In this document: positions 14,365-23,300 of the stretch, in pieces
How positions within the stretch are numbered: the stretch's first letter is position 1
Layout of the letters: every line of letters begins with the position of its first letter
Source: Xanthomonas nasturtii
GTDB taxonomy: Bacteria > Pseudomonadota > Gammaproteobacteria > Xanthomonadales > Xanthomonadaceae
Reading direction: 5' to 3'
DNA length: 64,000 nt
Assembly: GCF_001660815.1 (NCBI RefSeq)
Contig: NZ_LYMI01000003.1
Coordinates: forward strand, 62,001 to 126,000
Translations under genes and position numbers: made by a program
Notes under the pieces: generated by a model
The model's database searches: none
What the model saw: only the letters and a program-made list of their open reading frames with translations
Told to the model about the DNA's origin: nothing

Positions 14365-14467
14365 GGCGTACATCGCAGGCGGGGGGAACGGCCGGTATTC
14401 TAGCAGCGCTAGCCGTTTCGAGAGCGGCTGCGGCACCGATCGATGTCGAAGCACGCCGCTTGGCGCT

Positions 14468-14780: not shown

Positions 14781-16916
14781 TTATATAACAGCATGACCAT
14801 ATGCGTGTTCGATATCTCGAGCGGGAAGCACGTCCGACAGCGCCGCGTGGGGACGGAACTCCTGTACCACGCGCCCTTGCTCAAGCACGATCACCCGATC
14901 TGCGCTGGCAATGGTCTCCGGTCGATGCGCCACGATCACCTTGGTTACCTTCAGCCGCTTGACCGCCTCATTGACCAGTCGCTCACGCATCACGTCGAGG
15001 TGACTGGTGGCTTCATCCAGAAACAGCAACTTCGGCTGACGGTATAGCGCACGTGCCAGGATGATCCGCTGTTTCTGGCCGCCAGACAGCGAGCTGCCCA
15101 TGTCGCCAATCAATCCGTGATAACCCATCGGCATTGCAGCGATATCCTCATTGACCGCTGCCAGCCGCGCTGCCGACTCGATACGCTCAAGATCGAAATC
15201 CTGGTCGAAGAAACTGATGTTGTCGGCAATGCTCCCGGCGAGCAACTGGTCGTCCTGCATCACCGCACCCACGATCGCGCGCACATTCCGCGGGCCGATC
15301 TTATGCAGGTCATGACCGCCGATGCGGATGACGCCTTCGGTCGGCTGCAGTAGACCAAGCAACAGCTTCAACAACGTGGTCTTGCCACAACCGGACGGGC
15401 CGACGATCGCTACCGATTCACCGGCCTGAATGCTGAAACTGCACTCCTTGAGTATCCAGGGCTCACCTTCTGCGTACCGAAACGACAGCCCTTGCAACTC
15501 GATCCGCAGCTCCGCCGGTGGCAGCGTCTCCGGCAGCGCGTGATCGTTTTCAGGCTGCGTCAGCACGATATCGGCCAGCCGTTCACCATGCAGGCGCAGC
15601 ATTCGGAATTCTATCCACTTGTCGATCAGCCCGCTCACCCGCATGGCAAACTGATCCTTGTAGGCCAAGTAGGCAACCAACATGCCTACCGAGAACACGT
15701 TATCCAGCGCCAGGGTGGCCCCGATCCAGATCACTGCGATACGTTCGAGGCCAAAAACCACTTGACTGGCCGTGCTGAACCCCAGCCCCATCCGGGCCAA
15801 CCTCACGTCCTGATTGACGGTGTCGTTGAGCAGATTCTCATAGGCAGAGCGACGCTGCGATTCTTCGCCGGCTATTTTCAAACTCTGCATTCCGCGTAAC
15901 GATTCCAGCAGATGCGTCTGCTGCTTGGCGGCAGCGACTAGTTGCTGCTCGGTGCGGTCACGCACCGGACGATATGCAACCGCTCGAATGGTCAGATACA
16001 GCGTGACCACCACTAATGTTACCAAGGCCAGCTTCCAGCTGTAGATCAGCATGAATCCCAGCGTGACTACTGCCATTAGTCCATCGATGATGGACTCGAC
16101 GAAACTGGTCGTCAGCGTGCGCTGAATCGTCTGTACCGACGACATCCGCGAGGTGATATCGCCCAGATGGCGTTTTTCAAAGAAATCCAGCGGCAGCTTA
16201 ATCAGATGGGCAAACACGTTTCCCATCCACTGTAGCCCCAGCCTGGAAGACAAATACACCACTGCCCATCCACGGAGTAGACCAATGCCGATCTGCAACA
16301 ACAACGCCAGACCAAAGCCGAAACCAACCACTACCAAAAGATCGCGGTCGGCCGACACCAATACCTGATCCACCACCCACTGCATGTAGAACGGCGCCAA
16401 AATCACAAAGATCTGCAGCGCGGCAGACAACAGCAGTATCTGTGAGAGCGCGCCCCACAGCCCGCGGATCTGGCCAGTGAGCTGGCGCACAGAGAAGGGA
16501 GGCGCAGTCTTTTGTGGTTTGAACTCCGCAGTTGGCGTGAGCTCCAACGCAACGCCGGTAAAGGATCTTGATACTTCATCAAGCGACAAGATCCGCTCAC
16601 CGATAGCGGGGTCAAGAATCGTCACCTTGGCCTTGCCGACCTTTGCCAGGACGACGAAGTGATTGAGATCCCAATGCAGGATGCACGGTAGCTGGAGCTG
16701 GCTCAGGTTCTCCATACCCAACCGCAGTGGGCGGGTCGCAAAGCCGAGTTGCTGGGCCATAGCGATCAGGTGATTGAGTCTGGCGCCCTTAAGCGATAAT
16801 GGAAACCGGCGACGCAACTCTGATAGCTGAGTCCGCCCGCCATGTATAGATATAATAATCGCCAATGAAGCCAGCGCACATTCAGCAGCCTCAACCTGGC
16901 GGATAATTGACTTCAT
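14781..16916 (-). CDS. Bacteriocin-processing ABC exporter with C39 peptidase domain
   Basis: Inner-membrane exporter of 711 residues that would cleave double-glycine leaders and export the peptide. Domain order: C39 cysteine peptidase (1-130) with Gln7, Cys13, His86 (LNHFVVL) and Asp102 (ILDPAIG); ABC membrane domain (about 150-430); ATPase with Walker A GPSGCGKTT, signature LSGGQKQR, Walker B LLFLDEATS and the VAHR switch. The catalytic cysteine is followed by Ala rather than the usual Gly. The start ATG overlaps the stop of the CPBP-like gene (ATGA, 16913-16916), so translation is coupled. With the HlyD protein at 17970 and two leader peptides nearby, it forms a colicin-V-type export locus. 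Confidence 0.95.
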   Translation of the reverse strand: MKSIIRQVEAAECALASLAIIISIHGGRTQLSELRRRFPLSLKGARLNHLIAMAQQLGFATRPLRLGMENLSQLQLPCILHWDLNHFVVLAKVGKAKVTILDPAIGERILSLDEVSRSFTGVALELTPTAEFKPQKTAPPFSVRQLTGQIRGLWGALSQILLLSAALQIFVILAPFYMQWVVDQVLVSADRDLLVVVGFGFGLALLLQIGIGLLRGWAVVYLSSRLGLQWMGNVFAHLIKLPLDFFEKRHLGDITSRMSSVQTIQRTLTTSFVESIIDGLMAVVTLGFMLIYSWKLALVTLVVVTLYLTIRAVAYRPVRDRTEQQLVAAAKQQTHLLESLRGMQSLKIAGEESQRRSAYENLLNDTVNQDVRLARMGLGFSTASQVVFGLERIAVIWIGATLALDNVFSVGMLVAYLAYKDQFAMRVSGLIDKWIEFRMLRLHGERLADIVLTQPENDHALPETLPPAELRIELQGLSFRYAEGEPWILKECSFSIQAGESVAIVGPSGCGKTTLLKLLLGLLQPTEGVIRIGGHDLHKIGPRNVRAIVGAVMQDDQLLAGSIADNISFFDQDFDLERIESAARLAAVNEDIAAMPMGYHGLIGDMGSSLSGGQKQRIILARALYRQPKLLFLDEATSHLDVMRERLVNEAVKRLKVTKVIVAHRPETIASADRVIVLEQGRVVQEFRPHAALSDVLPARDIEHAYGHAVI

Positions 16917-17356
16917 TTAATTCCGCTAGAAAAATTAATAAAAATAATAGCGCAACAATTCCAGGTGGCGTGCAACAGAAGAGTTGAAATGAACGCATTC
17001 CCACGCCCCCAACGCCTGGTCAGCCCATACGTGAAAGCGAGAATTCCGCCCCCAATCAATCCAGGAACCACCACTCTGACCCCCCCCCCAGTATGCGCCA
17101 GTAGGAAGACAACCCACGAAACTGCAATAGAAATTTTCGCACCCCATCCAAATCGCAACACTAGCTCTTGGGTGATAAATTGGTACATAACTGTCTCAAG
17201 AAAAGGGTAGACGACCACATATAATAAAAATAATCCAAACTTATATTTACCAGAATCAACCGAGCCGAAGAAGAAATAAGTAACAGGGGCACTTAATATA
17301 AAAATTAAAGGTAGCAATTTTCTAAAAAAAAACATTTGCATGCTCGCATCTAACAC
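16913..17356 (-). CDS. CPBP-like intramembrane protein, candidate bacteriocin immunity
   Basis: 147-residue polytopic membrane protein. Motif 1 of the CPBP (Abi) family is present only partly (PFLETVMYQF in place of EExxxR). Motifs 2 and 3 are seen as FLLAHTGGG and HATWNCC. CPBP proteins are intramembrane proteases, and several in bacteriocin clusters act as self-immunity. Here the gene lies between the peptide precursors and the exporter and overlaps the exporter by 4 bp, fitting immunity. The missing second Glu and Arg may mean it is not a protease. Starts at 17356, 17341 and 17335 are all possible. The region is clearly lower in GC than its surroundings. Confidence 0.8.
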   Translation of the reverse strand: MLDASMQMFFFRKLLPLIFILSAPVTYFFFGSVDSGKYKFGLFLLYVVVYPFLETVMYQFITQELVLRFGWGAKISIAVSWVVFLLAHTGGGVRVVVPGLIGGGILAFTYGLTRRWGRGNAFISTLLLHATWNCCAIIFINFSSGIK

Positions 17357-17357
17357 T

Positions 17358-17389
17358 GATATCGCCGGACGTTATAGCCCGGCGATATC
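17358..17389. promoter_or_regulatory. 11-bp inverted repeat between peptide and immunity genes
   Basis: GATATCGCCGG (17358-17368) and CCGGCGATATC (17379-17389) are exact complements around a ten-base loop. On the minus-strand transcript this hairpin follows the 54-residue precursor gene by about 10 bases and precedes the CPBP-like start. It could stabilise or partly terminate the transcript so that precursor exceeds immunity and exporter. There is no long T tract after it. Confidence 0.6.
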
Positions 17390-17399
17390 GCGTTAAAAA

Positions 17400-17564
17400 T
17401 TAAAATCGCTCGCCACGAACATAACCATCATTGATGGCCGCACCGTTTTCCCAGGCCCAGTGTGCTGCGTTACCGGCAAATTCTCCAATCGCACTAAAGA
17501 CACCACACCCGCTTACCATAGCAGTTTCTTCTTCGGATATTTCCACTAGTGCAAATTCACTCAT
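17400..17564 (-). CDS. Double-glycine-type bacteriocin precursor, peptide 1
   Basis: 54-residue peptide. It starts MSEFALVEISEEETAMVSGC, an acidic, amphipathic leader of the double-glycine class with the cleavage position reading SG-C-G rather than GG. The core is small and aromatic/glycine-rich (GVFSAIGEFAGNAAHWAWEN and a charged tail ending GERF). A GGGAG ribosome site precedes the ATG at 17564 by about eight bases. It lies between the second precursor and the CPBP-like gene, in the same strand and order as the C39 exporter that would process it. Antibacterial activity is inferred from architecture, not shown. It is not listed among the longer open frames because of its size. Confidence 0.78.
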   Translation of the reverse strand: MSEFALVEISEEETAMVSGCGVFSAIGEFAGNAAHWAWENGAAINDGYVRGERF

Positions 17565-17599
17565 GACTACATCTCCCTATTAGAAATCTTGCAGTAAAG

Positions 17600-17818
17600 T
17601 TAAGTGAGTGGATGTGCTTTAGATTCGTTCCAGCCTTTAGCAAAAACTTGGCCAAAATCGATGACTGCATCACCAATCGCTAAAACGTCCTTCCAACCGA
17701 CACCTGCAGAAATCAGCTCGATATCATTATCTGTCAGATCCAACAGAGTATTAGCACCTTGGTTATTGCACATTAGCCATGTGCCAGCTATCGGGGCAAC
17801 CCCCCCAAAACTATTCAT
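17600..17818 (-). CDS. Double-glycine-type bacteriocin precursor, peptide 2
   Basis: Up to 72 residues. The leader-like segment LLDLTDNDIELISAG fits the double-glycine class with an AG cleavage site. The core begins VGWKDVLAIGDAVIDFGQVF and ends NESKAHPLT. Both precursor cores share an AIG(E/D) stretch followed by small, hydrophobic residues and an aromatic/charged tail, as in two-peptide bacteriocins. The start at 17818 has AGG eight bases upstream; the start at 17773 (MCNNQGAN) would give a more usual 24-residue leader but lacks a ribosome site. A 22-codon frame (17811-17879, with GGAG upstream) ends across this start and may be translated ahead of it. Unknown whether it acts alone or with peptide 1. 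Confidence 0.66.
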   Translation of the reverse strand: MNSFGGVAPIAGTWLMCNNQGANTLLDLTDNDIELISAGVGWKDVLAIGDAVIDFGQVFAKGWNESKAHPLT

Positions 17819-17969
17819 CCCTGCCTACAATGCTATTAATCAACACAGCGACTCCCAAGTCCATTCCACCAATCCTCATTGATCTCCAGGGATTTCAGAA
17901 TTTGTCAAAATTACTAGAGCAGCTCTGAAAGATTTATCATGCCTAATGCTCATCCATCACTGGGATAGA

Positions 17970-19235
17970 TCACTTGCCGAGTGTCAACAATGGCTCAAAA
18001 ACCCACTCGATTAGCCTTCTCCGTTCTCCAATGATGTCGGCTTGCAACAGCATTCCTGGCTTGAGCATCTGGGGCTTGCCGTAGGCCATGACGCTTTGCC
18101 GCCCCAGGGCAACAGTGACGCGGTAACACGGTTCCCCCTGCCCGGCATTCCCGATCAACGGACCCGATGCACTCCCAACGAGCACGCCGCGGCTAACCTG
18201 GCTCAGGCGACCTTGCTGGTGACCAAACTTCTGATACGGGAATGCCTGATAGCGCAGCAATACCGTGTCCCCTGGAGCGACAAAGCCAACGGCACGGCTG
18301 GGCACAAGCAATTCGGCTTCCAGGCGCCCATCCCCCGGCACCACGCTCAGCAGTGGTTGCCCGCCTTGGATCGCTTGCCCCGGTTTTGCCATCTGCGTCG
18401 CCACCACCCCTGCCACAGGTGCCGTCAGCACCAACGCGCCATTGGCCTGGGTTTGCACCTGCTCCTGTTCCACCGTCGCCGCATCACGGCGATAGTCGGC
18501 CTGCACCCCCCCGCGCTGCCCCGGCAATACACGCAATTGTTGTTCGATCTGCGCGGCGTTGCGTCGCATTTCGGTGGCTTGCCGCTGCAACGCCTGCAGC
18601 TGGCTGGTGTATTCCAGCGCGCTGGATTCCTGCTGCCTGATCTGCAACACGCTGACGTACTTGTCATCCTGCAACTGGCGCCAACGTTGCAGCACTTCAT
18701 TGGCGAGGGCGATCTGGCTGCGACGTGTAGCGACTTTCCCGTTCACCTGCACCAATTCCTGCTGGATATTGGACAACTGCGCGCGCAAGCCCTGCTCCTG
18801 CGCATCCAACTGCTGCAGCTGTGCCTGTTCAGATGCCTTCAAGCCATCCCCGCGCTGATGCAGATGGCGCTGCAAGGCAAGCTCGGTATCGCCACTGGCC
18901 AGCGTCGCGCGCGGAACCGTCACGACACCCAGGATCTGTCCGGCCTCGACTCGTTGGCCTTCGCTAACGTCTAGCCTGGTGACAACCCCGGTGGCGGGCG
19001 CAATCACCGTAGCCAGGCCTTTAGTTGGTACCAGTTGGCCGGTCACCGTGGACCGGTGCGTGTAGGTGCCAATGCACAGGTATGCAACCACCGCTGTCGC
19101 CACAATCGCAGCCACGCTTGCAACCACCCATGACTGCAACGGTTGCACCAATGATATGCCGCCCAGCCAACTGGTACGGCGAGCCTGCAACACCTCCTCG
19201 CGGAACAGGCCCTGGCTCATTCCGCATTGCCGCAC
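17970..19235 (-). CDS. HlyD-family adaptor of the bacteriocin exporter
   Basis: Periplasmic adaptor (membrane fusion protein) of about 416-421 residues. It has a short cytoplasmic tail and one membrane segment (VVASVAAIVATAVVAYLCIG, about residues 37-56). A lipoyl half follows (VIAPATGVVTRLDVSEGQRVEAGQ), then a long coiled coil (about 120-265), the second lipoyl half (LTAPVAGVVATQMAKPGQAI) and a beta-barrel end. This layout matches CvaA-type adaptors that pair with C39-ABC exporters. The start at 19220 (MSQGLF) is as likely as 19235. It is the first gene of the locus and probably works with the exporter at 14781 and TolC. Confidence 0.92.
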   Translation of the reverse strand: MRQCGMSQGLFREEVLQARRTSWLGGISLVQPLQSWVVASVAAIVATAVVAYLCIGTYTHRSTVTGQLVPTKGLATVIAPATGVVTRLDVSEGQRVEAGQILGVVTVPRATLASGDTELALQRHLHQRGDGLKASEQAQLQQLDAQEQGLRAQLSNIQQELVQVNGKVATRRSQIALANEVLQRWRQLQDDKYVSVLQIRQQESSALEYTSQLQALQRQATEMRRNAAQIEQQLRVLPGQRGGVQADYRRDAATVEQEQVQTQANGALVLTAPVAGVVATQMAKPGQAIQGGQPLLSVVPGDGRLEAELLVPSRAVGFVAPGDTVLLRYQAFPYQKFGHQQGRLSQVSRGVLVGSASGPLIGNAGQGEPCYRVTVALGRQSVMAYGKPQMLKPGMLLQADIIGERRRLIEWVFEPLLTLGK

Positions 19236-19457
19236 ATTGTGCCGCGCGCGGCATGGCGATTGAAAAGCGCAATCGCCAGCACGGAGGACGGCAGGATCAG
19301 TGCTACGACCCGGTGGAACGCGATGGAGATGGATTCGAGCACGCTACGATCCTTGGCAACGAGCAACGGGCGATGGCAACGGGGCCTGGGTCTCCGGCGG
19401 ACCGAGCTTCCCTGACTCGGCCTTTATTAGGCTCGCCACCTGAAGGCGATACAAGCG

Positions 19458-19548
19458 CTTGGGTGTGGCAAACCTGGCATGGTTTGCCACCCATGTCGCC
19501 TCAATGCGACACGGGTGCCGGCTTACTGCCAGCACCTCCATACCCAAG
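19458..19548. other. Cloverleaf-like structured intergenic element
   Basis: CTTGGGT (19458-19464) pairs with ACCCAAG (19542-19548) and encloses three hairpins. They are GTGGCAAACC/GGTTTGCCAC (19465-19490), TGTCGC/GCGACA (19494-19511), and GGTGC-GGC/GCC-GCACC (19514-19536, with one mismatch pair). No anticodon arm or CCA-adjacent tRNA pattern is present. It fills much of the gene-free 19236-19612 spacer between the HlyD-type gene and the XRE gene. The function is not known: it could be an RNA, a mobile-element end or a recombination site. Confidence 0.6.
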
Positions 19549-19612
19549 CCAGTCTGGTGCCACATCGCTTCCAAGACACATGGTTGCCGCGCCACCGCCG
19601 AGCAGGCGGGGA

Positions 19613-20014
19613 TCACTCCATGAAAATGCTGGCACTCTCCAGTAGCGCAATGACCGTCGAGAGAAAGGACACCGGGGCATGGCGTGAGAGCTCAAGCAGG
19701 CGCGCCTCAAGATCGCGGCGTGAACTCGGTAAGGTACTGGACGGCTTCGGTTTGGCCTCATCAGCAATGCCACCAACCGCCAGCCACTCGAAGCCCACCT
19801 GGAGCTCACGGCTTAGCGAGCGCAGATGCTCGACACTCGGAACAAAGCCACTCTCACGTTCCCAATGCGCAATCGTGGCGCGATGCACACCAAGGCGGGC
19901 GGCCAGGCTACCCTGCGACAGACCAAGTGCCGCACGCGCAGATTTGATGCGGCCGGATACCGCGACAAGATCCATCTGATCGTTGTTAATCGTGCTCTCC
20001 ATGCGCATTACCAT
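19613..20014 (-). CDS. XRE-family helix-turn-helix regulator
   Basis: Cytoplasmic regulator of 129-133 residues. The N-terminal Cro/CI-type HTH is clear (IKSARAALGLSQGSLAARLGVHRATIAHWERESGFVPSVEHL). The C-terminal part is an uncharacterised helical tail. Starts at 20014, 20008 and 20002 are in frame; 20002 (MESTINN) is favoured by family length. It lies upstream of the bacteriocin genes on the same strand and has a TTACCA/TGGTAA dyad over its own start region, which suggests autoregulation. Control of the bacteriocin locus is inferred from position only. Confidence 0.85.
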   Translation of the reverse strand: MVMRMESTINNDQMDLVAVSGRIKSARAALGLSQGSLAARLGVHRATIAHWERESGFVPSVEHLRSLSRELQVGFEWLAVGGIADEAKPKPSSTLPSSRRDLEARLLELSRHAPVSFLSTVIALLESASIFME

Positions 20015-20027
20015 TTAAATGTGGTAA
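20008..20027. promoter_or_regulatory. Candidate operator at the XRE gene start
   Basis: TTACCA (20008-20013) and TGGTAA (20022-20027) are complementary and surround an AT-rich centre containing ATTTAAAT. The dyad covers the possible start codons of the XRE gene, so binding would block its transcription or translation. The protein that binds is inferred. Confidence 0.4.
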
Positions 20028-20393
20028 CTGGATTTTGGCGTAAAGGTCGAGCTTGTCAATCGAGTTTCCGCGATTCGGCGAAAGCTTTAAACGGCAGGTC
20101 GGCAGGGGATTGCCGTGTGATCGTTTACCGAGGCGCTTTGTCTGGCAAATACCTTCTTCGGCCTATCAAAAAGCGAAATGAAGTCCCCGATTGCGAAGGT
20201 ACCGGTAAATCCACAGCGATGACGACGCTGCATATCAGCAACAGGCCCAGCTCGCTTGTCTGTTTGAACGTCTTTGGCCAGCATCGAATTCCTCGACTTC
20301 GGCAACGGCGGGAACACGCTGCTGTCTAGTCCGCATTTCATCCCCCGCTGTCACCCATCCGCCGCTACTCCATCGCTCAGGAATCTGCACAAC
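20028..20393. other. Gene-free spacer upstream of the GH92 gene
   Basis: No frame here has family features, and codon use is not gene-like. The spacer separates the XRE gene and the mannosidase gene, which point away from each other, so it should hold both promoters. I could not recognise a specific binding site beyond the dyad at 20008-20027. Confidence 0.6.
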
Positions 20394-23300
20394 GTGATCC
20401 GATTGACCATCGCACAAGCAAGCCTGCTCGCTTCAATGCTTGCCTTGCAGCCTCTCACGACCAAGGCGAGCACAGAATCCGGGTTCGCTACGTCGTTCGA
20501 GCCAGAAGAGCCCAGTCCGGCGATGGACGCTGCGCAGCGCCTCAAGGTCAATGTCGGCGCCGGACCAGCGGCGCCCTACGCAGCCAGGCCCAATGCCGGC
20601 TACAGCGGCGTGCATGCGTTGCGCTATCACGGCGGCGATGCAGACGGCCGACGCACGCTGTTCAGCGTTGACCTCCTGATCGGTGCGGACACCACGCTGT
20701 CGTGGATGGTGCTTCCGGAAAGCATCGGCGCCGATCATGTTGCTTCGACCTATGTGTCGCTGGATCTGGTCTTCGACAATGGCACGCGATTGTCCGCTAC
20801 CTCTGCGCGGGACCAGCAAGGCGTGGCGATGGGCGCGCTTGCGCAAGGTCAGTCGAAGACGTTGTATCCGCAACAGTGGGCGCGCAAGCAGGTGCGATTG
20901 GGGGACGTGGCCGGGTTGCGCGGGCGGCGCGTCGTGGCGATCGAACTGGATGTGGCGCCGCCTGCGGGCGCGAGCGCAGCCGGCTGGGTCGACGATATCT
21001 CCATTGCCGAGGTACCGCTGACTCCGCCGGCGCGGCCATCGGATTGGGTGCTGACCACGCGCGGCACGCAGTCCAATGGTACGTTTTCGCGTGGCAACAA
21101 TTTCCCGGCAACGGCTCTGCCGCATGGGTTCAACTTCTGGACGCCGGTGACCGATGCGGGAACGCTGACCTGGCTGTATCGCTGGAACGAACGCAACGGC
21201 ACCGATAACCGGCCGCGTCTGCAGGCGCTGTCGCTCAGCCATCAGCCCAGCCCGTGGATGGGCGACCGGCAGACCTTTCAGGTGATGCCTTCGCTCACTG
21301 CCGGGGTGCCGGAAGCCGATCGCAGCAAACGCGCGCTGGGGTTTTCGCATGACGCCGAAAGTGCCCGCCCCTATCGCTACGCCGTGAAGCTGGATAACGG
21401 CATCCATGCGGAGATCGCGCCGACCGATCATGCGGCGCTGTTCCGCTTTCGCTTCCCGGCGCGGGGCGATGCCAATCTACTGTTCGACAACGTGGATGCG
21501 CGCGGCGGGCTACGCCTGGATGCGGCAACGCAGACCCTCTCCGGTTACACCGATGTGCGTAGCGGGCTATCGACGGGTGCCACGCGCATGTACATCTACG
21601 CCAGCTTCGATACGCCCTGGCACAGCAGCGGTGCGATCGACACCGGGCGCCCGACCGGCTGGATCAAGTTCGACGCCGGCAGCGCACGACAGGTGCAGAT
21701 GCGCATCGCCACCTCGCTGATTTCGCTGGATCAGGCCAGGCACAACCTGGCGCTGGAAATCGCACCGCACGCGAGCGTCGAGCAGGTTGCCATGCGCGCG
21801 CAGGACGCCTGGGACACGTTACTGGGTCGCTTCGACGTGCCCGATGCCACTGCCGACCAGAAGACCACGCTGTATTCCAATCTGTACCGGCTATACCTGT
21901 ACCCGAACTCGGCGCATGAAAACGTGGGCACTGCGACTGCGCCGGATTGGCGCTACGCCAGCCAGAACAGTTGGTCGGACAACAACATCGACGGCAGCGC
22001 GGTGCGCAGCTTCGCACCGATCCGCGATGGCCGGGTATACGTCAACAACGGGCTGTGGGATACGTTTCGTACGGCCTGGCCGGCGTATGCGTTGTTTGCA
22101 TCCGATGACGCCGGTGCCTTGGTGCAGGGGTTTGTGGAGCAGTCGCGCGCGGGCGGATGGATCGCGCGGTGGTCATCGCCGGGGTATGCAGACCTGATGG
22201 TGGGCACCAGCTCCGACGTGGCGTTTGCCGATGCGTGGCGAAAGGGAGTGACCGGCTTCGACCCGGCCGAGGCGTATGCCGCCGCGCTGAAGAATGCCAC
22301 GGTGGTCGCGCCGGACCGGCATGTCGGGCGCAAGGGCATGGCGCGTTCGACCTTCCGCGGCTACACCGATACCGACACGCACGAAGGCATGTCGTGGTCG
22401 ATGGAAGGTGCGCTCAACGACTTCGGCATCGCCGCCATGGCCGATGGGTTGTCCAACCAGGCCACGACGGCGGCAGCGCGCGAGCGTTATGCGACCGAGG
22501 CGTTGTATTTCCGTCACCGCGCGGCCGGGTATGCGGCGTTGTTCGATCCGGCAGTCGGCTTTTTCCAGGGCCGCACACCCGATGGTGCGTGGCGCGTGGC
22601 TGCGGCACAGTACGACCCGCGCGTATGGGGCAACGATTACACCGAATCCAGCGGCTGGACGTTTGCGTTCACCGCGCCGCACGATGGCGAAGGCCTGGCT
22701 GCGCTGTACGGTGGACGCGCGGCATTGGCCGCGAAGCTGGATACGTTTTTTGCCACGCCGGAAACCGCAGAAGCCCGCTTTGCAGGCTCCTATGGCGACA
22801 CCATTCACGAGATGACCGAGGCGCGCGATGTGCGCATGGGCATGTACGCGCACAGCAATCAGACCGCGCACCACATTCCGTGGATGTATCTGTATGCCGG
22901 GCAGCCGTGGAAAACGCAGCGGCTCACCCGCGAGATCCTGGCGCGCCTGTATCTGGGCAGCGAGATCGGCCAGGGCTACGCCGGCGACGAAGACAATGGC
23001 GAAATGTCGGCGTGGTATCTGTTCGCCGCGCTGGGGCTGTATCCGTTGCGCATGGGCGCGCCGGAGTACGTGATCGGCTCGCCGTTGTTCAAGCATGCCA
23101 GCGTGCGGTTGCCCAATGGCGGGACGCTGGTAGTCGATGCGCCGCAGAATTCGCCGCAGAACGTCTATGTGCAATCGCTGAAGGTCAACGGCACACCCTG
23201 GCGCAAGAGCTGGCTGCCGCATGCGGCCATTGCCGACGGTGCCAGGCTGGACTTCGAGATGGGGCCGGCGCCTTCGCGCTGGGGCAGCGGCCCGGATGAA

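What the first reader, a model, noticed from the sequence alone, without database searches (positions are those of the whole stretch)
14781..20027. Self-contained two-peptide bacteriocin locus with unannotated precursors
Seen: a C39 peptidase-ABC exporter, a HlyD-type adaptor, a CPBP-like membrane protein and an XRE regulator on one strand, and between them two small frames with double-glycine-type leaders (…ETAMVSGC and …DIELISAG) and small, Gly/aromatic cores that share an AIG(E/D) stretch. The precursors are 54 and up to 72 residues long. The middle of the locus is markedly AT-richer than its flanks, as expected of acquired DNA. Family knowledge: C39 exporters mature double-glycine peptides. 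Inference: the two cores act together as a two-peptide bacteriocin with the CPBP-like protein as immunity.
Basis: partly seen in the sequence, partly recalled or inferred. Interest (0 to 1): 0.78.

Follow-up and report, generated by a model that had tools for sequence, protein, structure and literature searches.

The report
Gram-negative lactococcin-G-like bacteriocin pair
A Gram-negative bacterium carries a small gene set for exporting two peptides that look like the two halves of lactococcin G, a bacteria-killing pair known from Gram-positive lactic acid bacteria, which suggests that this kind of weapon may also exist in Gram-negative bacteria.

Summary
In detail: XRE regulator, HlyD-type adaptor, two short double-glycine-type precursors, CPBP protein and C39 exporter lie on one strand. 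The two-peptide reading gains support. Precursor A's only NCBIfam hit is lactococcin G-alpha/enterocin 1071A (1.6e-5), B's only hit lactococcin G-beta/enterocin 1071B (3.1e-6). Among 398 genomes of the phylum the alpha model rings in this genome alone, the beta model in two. Without leaders, core A matches the enterocin 1071A core (VFSxIGxxxGxAAxW; 0 of 5000 shuffles reach it). Stenotrophomonas pavanii has a related pair beside a related exporter. The second beta-ringing genome led to a genus where 14 of 25 matching places carry beta, alpha and a small membrane protein together. Against lactococcin G membership: scores below NCBI's cut-off, different receptor-binding halves, acidic cores, no strict GxxxG in B, and B against enterocin 1071B not significant pairwise. 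The locus is absent from 27 of 27 testable congeners; DNA homology runs into the exporter gene in two of six fetched, and four relatives hold the exporter at the same site, so the AT-rich cargo looks exchanged. Gram-negative two-peptide bacteriocins are known (Cdz). I call it a new variant. Activity, immunity and target are untested.

The parts
19613..20014 (-). XRE-type regulator, probable controller of the locus
   Evidence: HTH_3 7e-13; relatives in 14 of 80 other exporter loci, there on the strand opposite HlyD
17970..19235 (-). HlyD-type periplasmic adaptor (GTG start; an in-frame ATG at 19220 is possible)
   Evidence: HlyD_3 2.3e-20; homologues in 75 of 81 loci, window included
17600..17743 (-). 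precursor B, beta-like: leader ...DLTDNDIELISAG, core VGWKDVLAIGDAVIDFGQVFAKGWNESKAHPLT; further in-frame starts at 17773 and 17818
   Evidence: NF038034 3.1e-6, core alone 0.0013; above 119 of 119 control cores with a leader-free beta profile
17400..17564 (-). precursor A, alpha-like: leader MSEFALVEISEEETAMVSGC, core GVFSAIGEFAGNAAHWAWENGAAINDGYVRGERF
   Evidence: NF038035 1.6e-5, core alone 0.013; core against enterocin 1071A core p = 0.0002, rank 1 of 127 candidate cores
17349..17397 (-). strong RNA hairpin 2 nt after the stop of precursor A, covering the GTG start of the CPBP frame
   Evidence: stretch 17320-17410: -35.9 kcal/mol, z -5.7, 0 of 200 shuffles as stable
16913..17356 (-). CPBP/Rce1-like membrane protein, candidate immunity protein (in-frame ATG at 17341 possible); carries a run of ten G on its strand (17080-17089)
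   Evidence: PF02517 1.9e-7 over cut-off; motif 1 degenerate (LETVMYQ), FLLAH and HATWN kept (read, motifs recalled)
14781..16916 (-). C39-peptidase/ABC exporter that should cut the leaders and export both cores
   Evidence: PF03412 2.3e-32 plus ABC domains; Gln7, Cys13, His86, Asp102 shared with the S. pavanii exporter (that these are the catalytic residues is recalled)

Best explanation
The locus makes and exports an unmodified two-peptide bacteriocin that resembles the lactococcin G/enterocin 1071 type. Shown by sequence: two co-oriented precursors with C39-type leaders, a C39 exporter and adaptor, and alpha-like and beta-like similarity of the two precursors. Inferred: the C39 domain cuts after Gly-Cys and Ala-Gly; exporter, adaptor and a TolC-type channel release both cores; the cores pair through the alpha GxxxG helix and the amphipathic beta helix and together permeabilise the inner membrane of sensitive, probably related, cells; the CPBP protein protects the producer. 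The N-terminal, membrane-inserting half is what is shared with lactococcin G; the receptor-binding C-terminal half is not, so the receptor or the way into the target may differ.
For: Each precursor's only NCBIfam hit (E up to 1) is one half of the same family. Cores alone still hit the same models (0.013, 0.0013). At E 0.01 NF038035 rings in 1 of 398 genomes of the phylum (this one); NF038034 in 2 of 398, this one best, and the second has an alpha-like neighbour. Profile-profile, leaders included: alpha with alpha 2e-4, beta with beta 5.9e-5, crosses 0.085 and 0.61. Leader-free: core A with enterocin 1071A, 0 of 5000 shuffles (p 0.0002), rank 1 of 127 candidate cores; winA-SpavA p 0.0006, winB-SpavB p 0.0004, crosses 0.61 and 0.42. 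A leader-free profile of ten beta cores of another genus scores S. pavanii B 27.3, winB 6.6 and Ent1071B 4.0 bits, each above 119 of 119 controls and all 200 own shuffles. winB and Ent1071B have the same hydrophobic moment (0.53; p 0.006 and 0.008). Linked pair by a 64%-identical exporter in S. pavanii, with the layout of an enterocin 1071 plasmid: pair divergent from exporter and accessory gene. Beta-alpha-membrane protein cassettes at 14 of 25 places in a further genus.
Against: Scores lie below NCBI's cut-off (24.9 and 27.3 against 37 bits). Part of the signal is leader: 41 other double-glycine precursors give NF038034 4 hits and NF038035 1 at E up to 1 (best 0.0014 each), TIGR03949 11 (best 1e-6). 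winB against Ent1071B pairwise is not significant (p 0.37), and its score of 21 lies below the top six (24 or more) of 127 other cores. In the beta profile the margin of winB is small (its best shuffle 6.3 against 6.6 bits), and the second E. faecalis beta is passed by 1 of 119 controls. S. pavanii A and B against enterocin 1071 are weak (p 0.06, 0.02) and its cores alone hit nothing in NCBIfam. A profile of the other genus's alpha cores does not recover winA (60 of 200 shuffles reach it). Core B has no strict GxxxG; both cores are acidic (-2, -1) where enterocin 1071 is basic (+3, +4); winA's hydrophobic moment is ordinary (p 0.28). tblastn of A and B against plasmids found only matches taken as chance. 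No expression or activity data.
Confidence: 0.72

Rival explanations
1. A generic class II microcin locus: two independent small bacteriocins share one exporter, and the likeness to lactococcin G is convergence of short amphipathic GxxxG helices plus the common leader.
For: The exporter clade carries many different cargos; 15 of 45 loci with a strict precursor on the exporter strand have an adjacent pair, several unlike lactococcin G by eye. The leader adds to model scores. winB-Ent1071B pairwise is not significant.
Against: Alpha matches alpha and beta matches beta and not across, and both halves stay linked in S. pavanii and in a further genus.
Confidence: 0.17
2. The pair is cell-bound and contact-dependent like Cdz of Caulobacter, and not freely diffusible.
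For: Cdz is a Gram-negative two-peptide system with type I secretion (PMC5380434, passages); sister loci carry glycine-rich, zipper-like cargos.
Against: Neither core has GxxxGxxxG; Gly+Ala+Val+Ile is 50% and 42% against the 75% reported for the Cdz proteins; cores are 33-34 residues.
Confidence: 0.07
3. The peptides serve the producer: self-lysis or signalling, as with the Neisseria Nap peptides, or a plant-sensed peptide such as RaxX.
For: [quoted passage not shown] Xanthomonas RaxX is linked to a putative type I secretion system (listing).
Against: No sulfotransferase among the nine frames scanned; both precursors resemble known antibacterial peptides.
Confidence: 0.07

Closest known systems
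Lactococcin G / enterocin 1071 / enterocin C (class IIb two-peptide bacteriocins)
   Same: Adjacent alpha and beta precursors with double-glycine-type leaders, C39 exporter and accessory protein; alpha N-terminal helix with 9 of 15 residues identical to enterocin 1071A and GxxxG in the same register; Asp-Phe in the five betas aligned.
   Different: HlyD adaptor of a Gram-negative exporter; below NCBI cut-off; the C-terminal halves that dock into BacA in enterocin C (PMC12765074) are not conserved, except an Asp of core A at the position of EntC1 Asp27; acidic cores; in beta a Val where enterocin 1071B has the first Gly of GxxxG; CPBP in the immunity slot, where the enterocin 1071 record has a 125-aa membrane-like frame (that it is EntI is recalled) without significant likeness.
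Cdz (CdzC/CdzD) of Caulobacter crescentus
   Same: Gram-negative two-peptide system, type I secretion, small membrane immunity protein.
   Different: Cdz precursors are 84-86 aa glycine-zipper proteins, cell-bound and contact-dependent; the cores here are 33-34 residues without zippers.
Class II microcins (MccV and relatives)
   Same: Double-glycine leader, C39 exporter, HlyD-type adaptor.
   Different: Known ones act as single peptides (recalled); here two precursors match two halves of one bacteriocin.
Plantaricin EF / JK with Abi-type immunity proteins PlnI and PlnL (Abi taken as CPBP, recalled)
   Same: Two-peptide bacteriocin with a CPBP-family membrane protein.
   Different: No hit of the precursors to a plantaricin EF or JK model in NCBIfam; the window's CPBP has a degenerate first motif.

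Membership tests
Class IIb two-peptide bacteriocin | Two adjacent co-oriented precursors with double-glycine-type leaders | tested here: met
   17400-17564 and 17600-17743, 35 nt between; Gly-Cys and Ala-Gly in place of Gly-Gly
Class IIb two-peptide bacteriocin | Dedicated C39 exporter with accessory protein | tested here: met
Class IIb two-peptide bacteriocin | GxxxG or GxxxG-like motif in both peptides | tested here: inconclusive
   A: GEFAG in register with enterocin 1071A. B: only small-xxx-small (AIGDA, GQVFA), common by chance; S. pavanii B has GFKEG
Class IIb two-peptide bacteriocin | Cognate membrane immunity protein | tested here: inconclusive
   CPBP in the slot 3' of alpha; function untested
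Class IIb two-peptide bacteriocin | Activity needs both peptides | not testable with these tools
   bench only
Lactococcin G / enterocin 1071 family | NCBIfam NF038035 and NF038034 curated cut-offs (37 bits) | tested here: not met
   24.9 and 27.3 bits
Lactococcin G / enterocin 1071 family | Conserved C-terminal receptor-binding halves | tested here: not met
   alignments A8 and A9, against the role given in PMC12765074
Lactococcin G / enterocin 1071 family | N-terminal alpha helix with GxxxG | tested here: met
   9 of 15 identical without gap, p 0.0002; both Gly invariant in the five alphas aligned
Cdz | Glycine-zipper GxxxGxxxG repeats in both proteins | tested here: not met
   none in either core
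RaxX-RaxST | Sulfotransferase gene in the locus | tested here: not met
   none among the nine frames scanned against Pfam, which cover the co-oriented genes of 14.1-20.0 kb; overlapping shadow frames were not scanned
CPBP/Rce1-like (PF02517) | Pfam gathering score | tested here: met
   31.7 against 22.4 bits
CPBP/Rce1-like (PF02517) | EExxxR motif | tested here: not met
   reads ETVMYQ (motif recalled)

The most novel reading that the evidence does not exclude
Lactococcin-G-type two-peptide bacteriocins are a family that crosses phyla. A Gram-negative branch keeps the paired membrane-inserting helices, has changed the receptor-binding tails, is exported by type I secretion, and attacks BacA/UppP or another inner-membrane target of neighbours after crossing their outer membrane. 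In one further genus of the same class the branch is frequent as a patchily distributed beta-alpha-immunity cassette that uses an exporter encoded elsewhere.
Probability: 0.3. Interest if true: 0.8.

Novelty: new variant of a known kind. Interest (0 to 1): 0.62.

Why it matters
Enterocin C, of the lactococcin G group, is presented as the first two-peptide bacteriocin with a described binding mode, to BacA (PMC12765074). BacA is present in this genome and in 10 of 14 control genomes. If Gram-negative relatives exist, it becomes testable whether the paired helices or the BacA docking is the conserved principle, and how such a pair passes an outer membrane. Candidates are given in three genera, one with 14 cassettes to compare.

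Tried and rejected
tblastn of both precursors against 72,556 plasmids: one Paraburkholderia and one Burkholderia match lie over unrelated larger frames without a double-glycine leader, and two Pseudomonas matches lie in virB9; taken as chance. The enterocin 1071A query also touched Sinorhizobium plasmid pMl2 near a C39 gene (E 2), but no double-glycine leader precedes the match and a stop falls inside it; rejected. A Rhizobium match (E 10) was looked at only in the gene table. Search of 297 family genomes with A: 14 genomes at E 0.01, namely this genome, G267 (a real precursor) and 12 in open frames of 131-770 aa, one with a stop, that I did not inspect. With B: 3 genomes at 0.05, two of them weak and in frames of 642 and 293 aa; this search missed the S. 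pavanii beta. The two-row alpha alignment in 397 order genomes hit this genome, G267 and one place inside a 1165-aa frame taken as chance. The S. pavanii 74-aa membrane protein is not demonstrably related to the small membrane proteins of the other genus (p 0.02 to 0.80), so I do not call it immunity. Promoter and terminator scans were at chance level; no tRNA was found in the window. The second, weak match of A in the own genome (E 0.6) lies beside frames that look like parA/parB; chance. Tools not used: structure prediction (single chains only), viral contigs, Rfam.

Literature, full-text searches of the held library: ('two-peptide microcin': 0 papers). In their listings, and in the passages I opened, I saw no lactococcin-G-like pair in Gram-negatives; only the top of each longer list was shown, and most subscription papers and preprints are not held. 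Seen: PMC12765074 abstract/introduction, sections 11 and 12, and the first of two parts of section 15; PMC13174018 abstract and section 16; passages only of PMC5380434, PMC11798529, PMC8538875, PMC7616364, PMC11494933; all others as listings.
Full report
What is there. On the - strand between 14781 and 20014 lie, in order of transcription, an XRE regulator, an HlyD-type adaptor, precursor B, precursor A, a CPBP membrane protein and a C39-peptidase/ABC exporter. 35 nt lie between B and A. B has three possible starts (72, 57 or 47 aa). The leaders end in Ala-Gly (B) and Gly-Cys (A). A strong hairpin (-35.9 kcal/mol, z -5.7) follows A by 2 nt and covers the first possible start of the CPBP frame. 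The stretch 16913-17970 is 43.6% GC; none of 1261 overlapping 1-kb windows of this 63.2% GC sequence is as low.

What the precursors resemble. In NCBIfam at E up to 1, A has one hit, lactococcin G-alpha/enterocin 1071A (NF038035, 1.6e-5, 24.9 bits), and B has one, lactococcin G-beta/enterocin 1071B (NF038034, 3.1e-6, 27.3 bits); both curated cut-offs are 37 bits. In Pfam A has one weak hit, the alpha/beta enterocin family (PF08129, 0.022, below its cut-off), and B none. Cut to the cores, the same NCBIfam models remain at 0.013 and 0.0013. Six-frame scans of 398 genomes of the phylum, this one included, at E 0.01 found NF038035 in this genome alone and NF038034 in two, this one best.

Controls. 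Because leaders are shared widely, I scanned 41 other double-glycine precursors from sister exporter loci, picked by hand from those printed, some given only from the leader motif on: NF038034 matched 4, NF038035 1, the class IIb model TIGR03949 11, at E up to 1; best 0.0014, 0.0014 and 1e-6. The window's hits are roughly 90 and 450 times better than the best control for the two lactococcin G models, but the background is not empty. Without leaders, core A against the enterocin 1071A core scores 46, reached by 0 of 5000 shuffles (p 0.0002), rank 1 of 127 candidate cores (loose pattern, spurious frames among them); the ungapped match is VFS.IG...G.AA.W, 9 of 15 identical. Core B against enterocin 1071B is not significant pairwise (p 0.37; score 21, below the top six of the 127), S. 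pavanii B is weakly so (p 0.02), S. pavanii A p 0.06. Two-sequence profiles of the Gram-negative and the E. faecalis peptides, leaders included, align alpha with alpha (2e-4) and beta with beta (5.9e-5) but not across (0.085, 0.61).

Relatives. It has alpha and beta adjacent, divergent from a C39 exporter (64% identical to the window's) and an HlyD (47%). Its alpha hits NF038035 (2.9e-4); its beta hits TIGR03949 (2e-4, just under the cut-off) and NF038034 (0.0029); its cores alone hit nothing. On E. faecalis plasmid NZ_CP092575 alpha and beta also lie divergent from exporter and accessory gene. The second genome rung by NF038034, G869 of an unnamed genus in the same class, has an alpha-like frame next to the beta, though that alpha does not hit NF038035. 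With a five-row beta alignment, 23 of 59 genomes of that genus match at 0.01, against 1 of 66 genomes of S. pavanii's genus. I inspected all 25 matching places: 14, in 14 genomes, carry beta, alpha and a small membrane protein, the three always together; 11 carry none of the three by my profiles, which were built from members of the same set. Of these peptides I scanned four betas and four alphas: four of four betas hit NF038034 (4.1e-5 to 5.2e-4), one beta also exceeds the TIGR03949 cut-off (25.2 against 21.5 bits), and one of four alphas hits NF038035 weakly (0.091). The 14 genomes each have at least one C39 match over the Pfam cut-off, on another contig or, in the one single-contig genome, at least 11 kb from the cassette. 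A leader-free profile of ten of these betas scores S. pavanii B 27.3, window B 6.6 and enterocin 1071B 4.0 bits, each above 119 of 119 control cores and all 200 of its own shuffles, though window B's best shuffle comes to 6.3 and the second E. faecalis beta is passed by 1 control. The matching alpha profile does not recover window A (60 of 200 shuffles reach it). The chain is thus: window alpha to S. pavanii alpha and to enterocin 1071A; window beta to S. pavanii beta, to the other genus and weakly to enterocin 1071B.

Site and history. Of 34 other genomes of the genus, 27 have both flanks on one contig (one with a weak right flank). The interval there is 617-1130 bp, to a common end point, against 6349 in the window. 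Six were fetched. In two, homology runs to 14886, that is about 105 bases into the exporter gene, and resumes at 20244; in one of them I read the frame, which keeps the exporter's last codons as a relic. Four end at 14368 and resume near 20554. Four relatives (L030, L047, L048, L050) have the exporter next to the same zinc-finger and glycosyltransferase genes. The simplest reading is an old exporter site, lost in most congeners, whose AT-rich centre is exchanged. Across 80 exporter loci, 45 have a strict precursor on the exporter strand and 15 of these have an adjacent pair. Counting the window, HlyD relatives are in 75 of 81 loci, XRE in 15, the CPBP in the window only.

How it may work. In enterocin C, peptide 1 docks its C-terminal half in the outward pocket of BacA and its N-terminal GxxxG helix pairs with peptide 2 in the membrane, partly from models (PMC12765074, sections read). 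The window keeps the N-terminal helix and not the tails, except that Asp26 of core A falls at the position of EntC1 Asp27; S. pavanii has Ala there, so I put little weight on it. BacA is present in this genome. I rate BacA as target at about 0.2. How the peptides would cross an outer membrane is unknown. Abi-type (CPBP) proteins are immunity proteins for some two-peptide bacteriocins (PMC8538875, passages). Here the CPBP lies in the slot 3' of alpha, but EExxxR reads ETVMYQ, so protection by proteolysis is uncertain.

What is known. Cdz of Caulobacter is an established Gram-negative two-peptide system (PMC5380434, passages); the Neisseria Nap island has a protein with 30% identity to a domain of LagC, the lactococcin G immunity protein (PMC11798529, passages). 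So neither Gram-negative two-peptide bacteriocins nor hints of lactococcin G relatives in Gram-negatives are new. A linked alpha-beta pair of this type was not seen in the searches named above. On re-checking, one count changed (9 of 15 identical, not 10); the odds did not.

Noticed in passing
window 17080-17089, 17800-17806, 18506-18512: Three of the four C/G runs of 7 or more in the 64-kb window lie in this locus; a run of ten sits inside the CPBP frame, where slippage would shift the frame.
   Followed up: partly
L071 3231-3242 and 4701-4711; L041 5434-5443: Runs of 10-12 G lie just upstream of or near the start of double-glycine precursor genes in Silanimonas exporter loci; in the 43 loci examined 3 of 4 runs of 9 or more fall in the cargo region (37 kb). 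Possible phase-variable expression.
   Followed up: partly
L052 5427-5742, L067 5428-5753, L027 4212-4631: A second kind of precursor pair is co-conserved in Lysobacter dokdonensis, S. maltophilia and Lysobacter maris (like members p at most 0.0015 across species; the two members also show some likeness to each other). Not compared with the window's pair.
   Followed up: partly
L026 5210-5534, L023 5137-5449, L094 8172-8489: Further adjacent precursor pairs, one member of each with DFxxGxxxG, in Pseudoxanthomonas and Dyella.
   Followed up: no
L181-L190, L194, L196, L197, L199: Beta-alpha-small membrane protein cassettes in an unnamed genus of the same class, without a C39 exporter beside them.
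   Followed up: yes
G000:C3:126576-126947, just beyond the window's end: A second, weaker C39 match in a 740-aa frame of the same genome.
   Followed up: no
L171, L175: Homology to the exporter's 3' end at the otherwise empty site in two congeners; frame read in L171.
   Followed up: yes
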